A stretch of 33,830 bases of DNA from NCBI GenBank assembly GCA_015485695.1, contig WFTB01000043.1:1-33830 (forward strand), given 5' to 3'. Position 1 is the first letter of the stretch. Each line of letters opens with the position of its first letter. A model generated the notes under the pieces. That model did no database searches. It was given only the letters and a program-made list of their open reading frames with translations, and had not been told where the DNA came from. Made by a program: the position numbers and the translations under genes. Positions 12,275-31,141 of this stretch are shown piece by piece. This stretch comes from Patescibacteria group bacterium. GTDB lineage: Bacteria; Patescibacteriota; Patescibacteriia; WFTA01; S139-112.

Positions 12275-13118
12275 CTATCTGTTGACCGTAGGGTTTTTCC
12301 CGGTTCGGATTATTTCAGATAGCGCGCAAATCATTTCTTTGAAATAGAAAAGAACGCCTTGTTTACTGTATGTTTCTTTAAAATGAGACGGCTTGAATCG
12401 TTGATAATAGTATGCTCGTGACCAACATCTGCTCATCCTTACAAATAGAGTTATGTAATATTCAATTCCACTCTTTTGAACGAAATGCTCAATTATTTTT
12501 TTGCGAATGCTTAACGGTACACAGTAATGATGAGTAAGGGTTATTATGTCATCAAAAGGGGAGGTTAGATATTTAAATGTGTGAAAATCTACATGGAACC
12601 ATGAAATCTTCTTTTTATCTTTTTTGATAATTATGTTATAGGGAGCGGTATCAAATAGTGGCACGTTTGCGTTCGACAAGAATATTGAAATTATATCTTT
12701 CTTTACTTTCTTTATTTCCGTGATTATGTCATGCTTCCCGGCTATTAGTAGCAATTCTTCTAAGTCACGAATTACATTTTTAATGTGATATGGATAAAAC
12801 TTTATTTCCTTTGTGGGGGGGGGTGACTTGCATTTTTTTAATATCTTCTACAATAGAGAAAAACAATTTTTCCATAGTGTCCTTGCTGTACTGTTTTGAG
12901 CGCGCTACCTCAGAAAGAGTCTCTCCATGTATATATTCGGTTGTGATGTATTCAGGTGAATAATGCAGTATGTTCGGGACAGGAACATCGGATTTTCGAG
13001 CATGAAGAAGGCCTTCTTTTTCATAAAAGATTTCTTTTTGTCGGTTAGCTTTTTTCGTGTATGTCAGGAATGCTCGATCTCTAGATGCTCTCTCAAGATT
13101 TTTTTGTAATTTTATCAT
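12275..13118 (-). CDS. Phosphotransferase/kinase-like protein, frame broken at a homopolymer of nine G (C on coding strand)
   Basis: ORFs 12780-13118 and 12275-12754 join into one frame if the nine-base run 12815-12823 is read as eight: ...VEDIKKMQVTPPTKEIKFYPYHIKNVIRDLEELLLIAGKHDIITEIKK.... IHGETL and FDTAPYNIII segments resemble kinase-fold proteins. Confidence 0.6.
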
Positions 13119-28509: not shown

Positions 28510-28776
28510 TCATTTGTTTAATATTTTATAAAACGCGCTCTGTCTGTTGGCAAGTATGTGCGAACCGCGCGTAACGGTATTGATCCCCACGCCTAATTCA
28601 TCGACAATCTCACGTTGGCTCATACCTTCGTTTAGCAGTTTGACCACTTGCCATCGTTGCGCAAGATATAGCTGTTCGGCGGGAGTTAGAAGGTCTGTGA
28701 GAAACGCGGTTAGAGATTGTTTGGTGTGAGCCGATTTTTGTATGAGAGTTATATTGCTACAAGTTGATTTAAACTT
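28510..28776 (-). CDS. TrpR-family HTH protein without a canonical start codon in its open frame
   Basis: Minus open frame ...NITLIQKSAHTKQSLTAFLTDLLTPAEQLYLAQRWQVVKLLNEGMSQREIVDELGVGINTVTRGSHILANRQSAFYKILNK*; MSQRE..(D/N)ELG.GI.T(V/I)TRGS matches TrpR. Not in the ORF track on this strand. Confidence 0.75.
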   Translation of the reverse strand, partial: KFKSTCSNITLIQKSAHTKQSLTAFLTDLLTPAEQLYLAQRWQVVKLLNEGMSQREIVDELGVGINTVTRGSHILANRQSAFYKILNK

Positions 28777-29396
28777 TCATATTCGTCTTTAGGGTTGTCA
28801 GATTTCCAAATACCGGAGCCGATTACGATTCGATTTGCTCCCGCTAGAGAAATATCGGTGATGTTGTCTTTTTTTATACCGCCGTCAATTTCTATCGTTA
28901 TGTCTTTGTCGTTTTTTCGTATTTCGCGGATTTTGTTCAGAGTTTCGCGCTCGAACCGACGGCCCTGAGCGCCGGGCGTTACGGAGAGCAATAATACGAA
29001 ATCAATATCATGCATTTGCGCTTTGATATCTTCAATCGGCGTTTTTGGGTTTATGGCAAACCCTATTTCCATTCCGTACTCTCGCATTTCTCTGATTATC
29101 CTGTTCGGTTCTTCCATGGCTTCCATGTGCGCCGATACGCGATTGAATCCGAGTGAATACAAAGTGGCGAAATACCGTTCCGGATTTTGGACCATAAGAT
29201 GCGCTTCTAGGGTGAGTGTATTGTCGGAAACCGCGAATGCGTCAAGTTCGTCCGGAGACAATGTCTTGGAATCGACGAACTTGCCATCGGTAAAATCGAT
29301 TTGGACCGTTTGAGCGCCAAACTCTTCGGCTTGCTTTAACTGGGATTTGAGCACGGCATTATCATCGGTAAGAATGGCGGGAATTATTTCTATCAT
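28749..29396 (-). CDS. rpe: Ribulose-phosphate 3-epimerase family protein
   Basis: IPAILTDD, QIDFTDGKFV, LEAHLMVQNPERY, LLSVTPGAQGRRF, IEIDGGIKKDNI, ANRIVIGSGIW. Confidence 0.9.
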   Translation of the reverse strand: MIEIIPAILTDDNAVLKSQLKQAEEFGAQTVQIDFTDGKFVDSKTLSPDELDAFAVSDNTLTLEAHLMVQNPERYFATLYSLGFNRVSAHMEAMEEPNRIIREMREYGMEIGFAINPKTPIEDIKAQMHDIDFVLLLSVTPGAQGRRFERETLNKIREIRKNDKDITIEIDGGIKKDNITDISLAGANRIVIGSGIWKSDNPKDEYESLNQLVAI

Positions 29397-29508
29397 ATAT
29401 CACAGAAAACATAAAACCACATTATCACCCCGTAAGTATATCACGGTGCGTGTTTTTTGAATATGCGCGCCATGGAAGTGCGCTACGATACAATGAGCAT
29501 ACATCGAC

Positions 29509-29539
29509 TTGACAACTCTCTCTCTCTCTCTGCTTAGAT
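29509..29539 (+). promoter_or_regulatory. Promoter-like sequence with microsatellite spacer
   Basis: TTGACA (29509-29514), 19-bp spacer containing (CT)8, TG-C-TTAGAT extended -10 (29531-29539). Confidence 0.6.
29516..29531 (+). repeat. (CT)8 microsatellite
   Basis: CTCTCTCTCTCTCTCT, uninterrupted. Confidence 0.97.
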
Positions 29540-29609
29540 GAGCGGATACAATCCGTTCTTTTTTCACATTTATCTTAAACCACCCTAGCGGGTGGGAAAG
29601 GAGCGCGCG

Positions 29610-29747
29610 ATGCCACTTTTAGCTGTCGCCATAGCATTTTTTTTGTTTTTCATTATTTTTGCGGGGGATGTCGTAAAGTCTCTCAGTCGCATCGCTGATG
29701 CGATTGAGAGACTGAAGAATCAGGACGATTCTTCTTTCGAAGGGTGA
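29610..29747 (+). CDS. 45-aa single-TM membrane micro-protein
   Basis: SD GGAAAGGAG then ATG: MPLLAVAIAFFLFFIIFAGDVVKSLSRIADAIERLKNQDDSSFEG*; followed by a terminator. Below the ORF-track length cutoff. Confidence 0.75.
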   Translation: MPLLAVAIAFFLFFIIFAGDVVKSLSRIADAIERLKNQDDSSFEG

Positions 29748-29753
29748 TTTTAT

Positions 29754-29791
29754 CGGGAGATAACACGTATGTGCGATCTCCCGCCTTTTTT
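29754..29791 (+). terminator. Rho-independent terminator after the 45-aa ORF
   Basis: CGGGAGAT...ATCTCCCG then CCTTTTTTT. Confidence 0.85.
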
Positions 29792-29797
29792 TATCTC

Positions 29798-31141
29798 TTA
29801 ATTCATTCGGTATTCCAGGTTTGCTCGTTGTATAACGGACATGATAAGCCACCATATAAAAAACATCGAAGGAAGAGTCCAGAGATAGTGATCGAACAAT
29901 CCGAGCAATAACAATGAAACAAGAATCGTCGCGAACGCCGTTTTCTCGACAGCCAATTCTCGGCTTTGTTTCGGTATTACTATGTTAAGGGCTATTATTA
30001 TAATCAACGCGATCAAGCCTGCAATGCCGAGTTCTGCAAATACGAGCAAATATACGTTATGAACAGGCTGAATATCATAATCCTCTCTTTGGGGATTTTT
30101 TTGTTGTAAGGTTTTTGTATATGTTCCTATTCCGACGCCAAGAATAGGTTTTGCCTGTATCATATCTCTCGCTTCAGATATGCCCGCGACGCGTTCCGTT
30201 ATGCTTCGCTGTTCGAGACGTCCTGACGCGTCAAGTCGGGAATCGATAATGGACGGATATATCGCAACATACAAAGAGATTATCGTTATTATCGGAAGAA
30301 TCGCGATTTGAGCGAAGCTTGCGGGTTTTAATGGCTTGGATAATCGCTTTGCGAGACATGCGATTGCGATAATTGAAATCGCGACCCACGCGGACCTTGA
30401 AAATGTCAACAGAAGAGAAATGGCAAGCAAGATATAACAGGCGACAAGCGACAATCTCTTGATTATGAAAACTTCATAACTCTTTTTGAATTCCAGAGTT
30501 TGTATCAGATAGCTGACAAGAATCATTCCGATGACAATCAATCCTCCCAGCACGTTCGGATGAGGCTGTGAACCGTACGCTCGAAGCCACCTGCCGTCAC
30601 TTGTCTCTATGACCGATGTTCCGGATACCGACGCGTCATGAGGCGCCATGCCGAGCCATTTGCTTGTTATGATGTCGCTTTGCGTTAAGAACTGCGCGAT
30701 TCCAAGTGTCGCTTGAATCGTTATCGCAAGCGCCAAAACAATCGAGAGTTTTCTGATATTGACGGATGTTTTCGGTATTATATGCAAAATCGTTATTCCG
30801 AGCAACAGCCTGATTGACCAATACAGAGATAGATTCACATCGAATGACCTAATGACGCTGATTAAAGATATTATCAAAAGAAAGCATGATATCAGGATAA
30901 TCCAATGATACCGGTTTTTGGTGTCAAATCCGGACGGTATTTTGATGTCCGAATTTTTAATTCCTTTGAAAAACCATATAACGACAACGGCAATGAGAAC
31001 GATGTCAAATGCGTAGATGCTCATCTGCTGAAATGGTATATCGGAGTCAACAAAAATCCACCGCGTTTGCAGTGGCAATAAAAACACAAAAAGATAGATG
31101 AGTGAATCTATGAGGTTGTTTTGTTTGAGCAGGCGAAACAT
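29798..31141 (-). CDS. O-antigen ligase/polymerase family membrane protein
   Basis: 447 aa polytopic; SQPHPNVLGGLIVIGMIL, LLLTFSRSAWVAI, ILGVGIGTYTKTL, PVHNVYLLVFAELGIAGLIALI. Confidence 0.9.
   Translation of the reverse strand: MFRLLKQNNLIDSLIYLFVFLLPLQTRWIFVDSDIPFQQMSIYAFDIVLIAVVVIWFFKGIKNSDIKIPSGFDTKNRYHWIILISCFLLIISLISVIRSFDVNLSLYWSIRLLLGITILHIIPKTSVNIRKLSIVLALAITIQATLGIAQFLTQSDIITSKWLGMAPHDASVSGTSVIETSDGRWLRAYGSQPHPNVLGGLIVIGMILVSYLIQTLEFKKSYEVFIIKRLSLVACYILLAISLLLTFSRSAWVAISIIAIACLAKRLSKPLKPASFAQIAILPIITIISLYVAIYPSIIDSRLDASGRLEQRSITERVAGISEARDMIQAKPILGVGIGTYTKTLQQKNPQREDYDIQPVHNVYLLVFAELGIAGLIALIIIIALNIVIPKQSRELAVEKTAFATILVSLLLLGLFDHYLWTLPSMFFIWWLIMSVIQRANLEYRMN

What the first reader, a model, noticed from the sequence alone, without database searches (positions are those of the whole stretch)
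29509..29747. Possible phase-variable promoter: (CT)8 between -35 and -10 of a 45-aa membrane micro-gene
TTGACA and an extended -10 (TGC-TTAGAT) are separated by 19 bp, nearly all a perfect (CT)8. Loss of one CT gives the optimal 17-bp spacer. Repeat-length switching in promoter spacers is established for Haemophilus hifA/B and Neisseria porA. The downstream unit is self-contained: hairpin CCACCC-TAGC-GGGTGG, strong SD, ATG, one TM helix plus amphipathic tail, terminator. No phase-variation data are available here.
Basis: partly seen in the sequence, partly recalled or inferred. Interest (0 to 1): 0.68.

Follow-up and report, generated by a model that had tools for sequence, protein, structure and literature searches.

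The report
Four-copy CT-repeat promoter family
In this tiny-genome bacterium four separate genes, most of them for very small membrane proteins, share a promoter whose spacer is a CT repeat of different length at each gene (6, 6, 7 and 8 units), which is what a repeat-driven on/off or volume switch would look like, although no switching has been observed yet.

Summary
In detail: TTGACA (29509-29514), A(CT)8, TGC-TTAGAT (29534-29539), 19-bp spacer, 45-aa membrane ORF (29610-29747), terminator. It is not an isolated oddity. The whole genome (0.98 Mb, G000) has only four CT tracts of 6 or more units, and all four sit in the same module: TTGACAA-(CT)n-GN-TTnnnT, a short leader, a strong SD, an ORF with a membrane segment. 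Tract lengths are 6, 6, 7 and 8, so spacers are 15, 15, 17 and 19 bp. The genome's own promoters peak sharply at 17 bp, also those with an extended -10. Sequence similarity starts at TTGACA and is not detectable upstream. The module was not found in 94 relatives above chance, nor in GTDB scans. In the nearest relative (same family) the ligase and rpe genes abut, so the cassette is lineage-specific. No MutS was found. All this is what spacer-type SSR phase variation of a small gene family predicts. No reads, strains or expression data exist here, so switching remains inferred (about 0.5). Weak points: all four -10 boxes have T at the critical second position; n = 4; an unexplained dyad follows the -10. 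Main rival: a spread, conserved promoter or operator in which CT number is not a switch.

The parts
29509..29514 (+). -35 box TTGACA; start of the sequence shared by all four modules
   Evidence: upstream flanks of the four copies are not similar
29516..29531 (+). (CT)8 tract in the spacer; the other copies have 6, 6 and 7 units
29531..29539 (+). extended -10, TGC-TTAGAT; all four copies have TGn-TTnnnT
   Evidence: inferred to be the -10, start site not mapped
29540..29564 (+). dyad GAGCGGAT-ACA-ATCCGTTC followed by T6; a dyad near this position occurs in all four copies; role unknown
   Evidence: z -5.9 here, -4.3, -1.5 and -2.8 in the others
29580..29595 (+). leader hairpin CCACCC-TAGC-GGGTGG, only in this copy
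29597..29603 (+). strong Shine-Dalgarno sequence AAAGGAG
   Evidence: SD cores of 6 nt or more in 15 of 462 genes of the sample
29610..29747 (+). 45-aa ORF, one hydrophobic segment plus charged tail; orphan
29754..29792 (+). intrinsic terminator, CGGGAGAT...ATCTCCCG then T7
   Evidence: read from sequence

Best explanation
29509-29747 is one member of a four-copy, lineage-specific family of expression cassettes. Shown from sequence: each has TTGACA, a CT-repeat spacer, a TGn-TTnnnT extended -10, a strong SD and an ORF with a membrane segment. Inferred: the CT tract gains or loses units by replication slippage, left uncorrected because no MutS was found, which moves the -35 relative to the -10 in 2-bp steps. 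n = 7 gives the 17-bp spacing that this genome's promoters use, hence high transcription; n = 6 (15 bp) and n = 8 (19 bp) give low transcription. Each membrane protein would thus be switched or graded independently, as in Haemophilus hifA/hifB. In the sequenced state the C27 copy (n = 7) would be on; the window copy (n = 8) and the two n = 6 copies would be low.
For: Only four (CT)6+ tracts in the genome, all in this module. Tract lengths 6, 6, 7, 8 among related promoters, so length has changed since they diverged or was set separately. Genome spacing optimum 17 bp: 27 TTGACA-TANNNT pairs at 17 against 1-7 at each other spacing; with TGn 12 of 14 at 17. No MutS_V hit in a genome rated 99% complete, with 11 of 14 control genomes positive. 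Strong SD and membrane ORF behind all four. Precedent for a dinucleotide repeat changing -35/-10 spacing: hifA/hifB (PMC2651432).
Against: No reads, strains or expression data. All four -10 boxes have T at position 2, and TTnnnT at 17 bp is hardly above background in this genome (7, including C27, against 1-9 at other spacings). Tracts of 6-8 dinucleotide units are short for known switches (hifA has 9-11 TA). Only four copies, so the scatter around 17 bp could be drift. A dyad beside the -10 suggests another level of control.
Confidence: 0.5

Rival explanations
1. A promoter or operator sequence has spread within the genome in front of unrelated small genes (a mobile or duplicated promoter, or a regulon whose regulator binds TTGACAACTCTCTCTCT and/or the dyad). 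The CT tract is conserved as sequence; its length differences are neutral or only set basal strength and are not a switch.
For: Similarity begins at TTGACA and covers the leader, with unrelated flanks; spacer sequence is normally not conserved between promoters; a dyad follows the -10 in all four; extended -10 promoters can depend less on -35 spacing (general knowledge).
Against: In this genome extended -10 promoters with TTGACA are also strict about 17 bp (12 of 14). A regulator site should keep a fixed distance to the -10, but here the distance varies in 2-bp steps. Dyad loop lengths differ between copies.
Confidence: 0.33
2. The CT tracts are neutral slippage products in promoters that came from recent duplication of one cassette; expression hardly depends on them and the micro-genes are dispensable.
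For: Window and C2 leaders are clearly related; no homologues of the proteins elsewhere; the cassette is absent between ligase and rpe in the nearest relative.
Against: Perfect -35, TGn and strong SDs are kept in all four although flanks and ORFs have diverged.
Confidence: 0.13
3. Chance: a CT tract happens to lie between promoter-like boxes.
For: CT tracts can arise by slippage anywhere.
Against: Four of four tracts lie directly behind TTGACAA in one genome and none elsewhere in it; in the 94 relatives TTGACA plus (CT)4 occurs no more often than its reversed control.
Confidence: 0.02

Closest known systems
Haemophilus influenzae hifA/hifB divergent fimbrial promoters, (TA)9-11 (as described in PMC2651432)
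   Same: Dinucleotide repeat proposed to change -35/-10 spacing; membrane or surface product
   Different: There one divergent region with demonstrated switching; here four dispersed promoters, CT units, 6-8 copies, no data on switching
Mycoplasma hyorhinis vlp promoters (poly-A tract in the spacer region; from general knowledge, the work of Citti and Wise is cited in PMC4198240)
   Same: Family of promoters, each with its own repeat, in front of small surface protein genes in a reduced genome
   Different: vlp genes are homologous, clustered lipoprotein genes with a homopolymer; here the genes are dispersed and not clearly homologous
Neisseria nadA (PMC2791445, abstract) and porA (general knowledge)
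   Same: Repeat length alters spacing of promoter elements
   Different: In nadA the repeat is linked to a repressor and distal elements; here it fills the core spacer
Propagated or mobile promoters in prokaryotes (general knowledge)
   Same: Related promoter sequence in front of unrelated genes
   Different: Those are not defined by a variable repeat in the spacer

Membership tests
SSR-mediated transcriptional phase variation, spacer type (hifA/B, porA, vlp) | Simple repeat located between -35 and -10 | tested here: met
   All four copies; -10 assignment inferred
SSR-mediated transcriptional phase variation, spacer type (hifA/B, porA, vlp) | Repeat lengths move spacing around the organism's optimum | tested here: met
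   15, 15, 17, 19 bp against a 17-bp optimum in this genome; between paralogous promoters, not between cells
SSR-mediated transcriptional phase variation, spacer type (hifA/B, porA, vlp) | Repeat number varies between cells or strains at one locus | not testable with these tools
   No reads and no conspecific or congeneric genome among those held; only one same-family genome, which lacks the module
SSR-mediated transcriptional phase variation, spacer type (hifA/B, porA, vlp) | Expression changes with repeat number | not testable with these tools
   No expression data
SSR-mediated transcriptional phase variation, spacer type (hifA/B, porA, vlp) | Tract long enough to be hypermutable | tested here: inconclusive
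   6-8 units, the longest dinucleotide tracts in the sample; no MutS; rate unknown
Propagated (mobile) promoters | Homologous promoters upstream of non-homologous genes, with unrelated flanks | tested here: met
   leaders of window and C2 related (0 of 1000 shuffles reach the score), weaker for the others; upstream flanks not; ORFs show only hydrophobic-segment similarity

The most novel reading that the evidence does not exclude
An ultra-small-genome bacterium without MutS runs a multi-locus contingency system: at least four independently slipping CT-spacer promoters that set the levels of orphan membrane proteins, plus at least one frame-switched gene at a C9 tract in the same window. To my knowledge this would be the first spacer-type repeat switch described in such a lineage.
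Probability: 0.4. Interest if true: 0.75.

Novelty: new member of a known kind. Interest (0 to 1): 0.55.

Why it matters
If real, it would show that a reduced, probably host-attached bacterium uses repeat slippage to diversify small membrane proteins, a strategy known mainly from pathogens of animals. It gives a precise test that needs only existing metagenome reads: count CT units at four named loci. It would also mark four small genes, three of them under 50 codons, as real and probably strongly translated. My search of the paper library for Patescibacteria plus phase variation returned one paper, whose title and abstract concern archaeal DNA methylation.

Tried and rejected
Homologues of the 45-aa protein in 94 relatives and of the 160-aa C2 protein in 191 relatives: none convincing. 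Pfam and PHROGs: only weak matches, the best to a PHROG of unknown function. Same module in GTDB genomes and IMG/VR by pattern: three matches, rejected as chance after reading the sequence (no longer CT tract, no comparable leader). Rfam: only two tRNAs in the window. Further degenerate copies in the genome: none convincing. Same-family genome G001, 252-kb sample: no CT tracts of 5 or more units, only TA/AT tracts. Homology between the four ORFs beyond hydrophobic similarity: not convincing at DNA level. xseB-uvrA synteny in G001, to test whether the C17 copy is also an insertion: not syntenic, uninformative. TACAAT (29547-29552) as the true -10: rejected, no usable -35 and absent from the C27 and C17 copies.

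Full report
Observation. The sequence is as described: TTGACA 29509-29514, A, (CT)8 29516-29531, GC, TTAGAT 29534-29539, spacer 19 bp; a leader with a GC hairpin (29580-29595), SD AAAGGAG (29597-29603), a 45-aa ORF (29610-29747) and a terminator (29754-29792). The window is contig C43 of a 983,626-base genome, rated 99% complete; the sampled relatives of its class have genomes of 0.6-1.4 Mb. That it is a Candidate Phyla Radiation type bacterium is my inference from this.

Three more copies. A DNA search with the intergenic region found related sequence in the same genome. A whole-genome search for (CT)6 found only four loci. All four are the same module: window TTGACAA(CT)8GCTTAGATGAG; C2:31547 TTGACAA(CT)6GATTAGATGGAA; C27:1311(-) TTGACAA(CT)7GCTTAACTGGAA; C17:3555(-) TTGACAA(CT)6GGTTCAATGGAA. 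Each is followed by a leader, an SD of AAAGGAG or AAGGAGG and an ORF of 45, 160, 27 or 37 aa with a hydrophobic segment. Terminator-like hairpins with T-runs follow in the window, C27 and C17 copies. In a 676-kb sample no other CT tract of 5 or more units exists; simulations give 0.4 AG-type tracts of 5+ and 0 of 6+. SD cores of 6 nt or more occur in only 15 of 462 genes in the sample.

Spacing. In intergenic DNA of this genome, TTGACA followed by TANNNT is concentrated at 17 bp (27 pairs, against 1-7 at each other spacing from 12 to 23), and with TGn 12 of 14 pairs are at 17 bp. The four modules sit at 15, 15, 17 and 19 bp, always in 2-bp steps because of the repeat unit.

Origin. Similarity starts at TTGACA; the upstream flanks are unrelated, and the leaders of window and C2 are clearly related. 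The module is not found in 94 relatives above the control rate, nor convincingly in GTDB or viral contigs. The nearest relative, same family, has the ligase and rpe genes overlapping with no micro-gene between them, so the cassette is a lineage-specific insertion, or was lost in the relative. The two proteins searched have no convincing homologues in the genomes searched.

Mechanism. The most economical reading is a spacer-type repeat switch or tuner: slippage changes CT number and thereby -35/-10 spacing. The genome has no hit to the MutS domain while 11 of 14 control genomes do, which would favour slippage. In the same window a kinase-like gene (12275-13118, minus strand; N-terminal half weakly similar to ABC1 kinases, below the family cut-off) has its reading frame broken at a C9 tract (12815-12823): one frame is open for 106 codons up to it and another for 179 codons after it. 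It is the only G/C tract of 8 or more with that signature in the sample. With so few tracts this is not statistical proof (random positions show the signature at about 3%), and a sequencing error is possible.

What is not shown. No reads, strains, start sites or expression. All four -10 boxes carry T at position 2, and TTnnnT at 17 bp is hardly above background in this genome. A dyad close behind the -10 in all four is unexplained: too close to the -10 for a complete RNA hairpin in three of four, and too variable in loop length for a simple operator.

Comparison. It works like hifA/hifB (PMC2651432) or vlp if the inference holds. Membership among phase-variable promoters is not established, because the two features that define switching could not be tested. 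I therefore file it as a strong candidate, a new member of a known kind, and rate interest 0.55.

Noticed in passing
window 12275-13118 (-), tract 12815-12823: Kinase-like gene whose reading frame is broken at a C9 tract: two long open frames (106 and 179 codons) meet there. Candidate frame-type contingency gene, or a sequencing or assembly indel.
   Followed up: partly
window 29540-29564; L088 11573 onwards; L082 about 1281 (-); L034 about 3527 (-): A dyad begins 0-6 nt behind the TTnnnT box in all four CT modules, followed by a T-run in three of them. Role unknown.
   Followed up: partly
L130 1495-3454 against window 28749-31141: In the same-family genome G001 the O-antigen-ligase-like gene and rpe overlap; in this genome the micro-gene cassette lies between them on the opposite strand.
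   Followed up: yes
C27:47578-47587 (L084 7578-7587): Intergenic C10 tract, the longest G/C homopolymer in the sample, next to a hairpin with a G8 arm.
   Followed up: partly
whole-genome sample: About three quarters of genes (351 of 462) have no recognisable Shine-Dalgarno sequence; strong ones mark a small set including an Hsp20-like gene (window 9118, minus) and a probably secreted protein (L088 8313, minus).
   Followed up: no
window 29436-29444 (-): Extended -10 TGA-TATACT in front of rpe on the minus strand, so rpe probably has its own promoter, divergent from the micro-gene.
   Followed up: no
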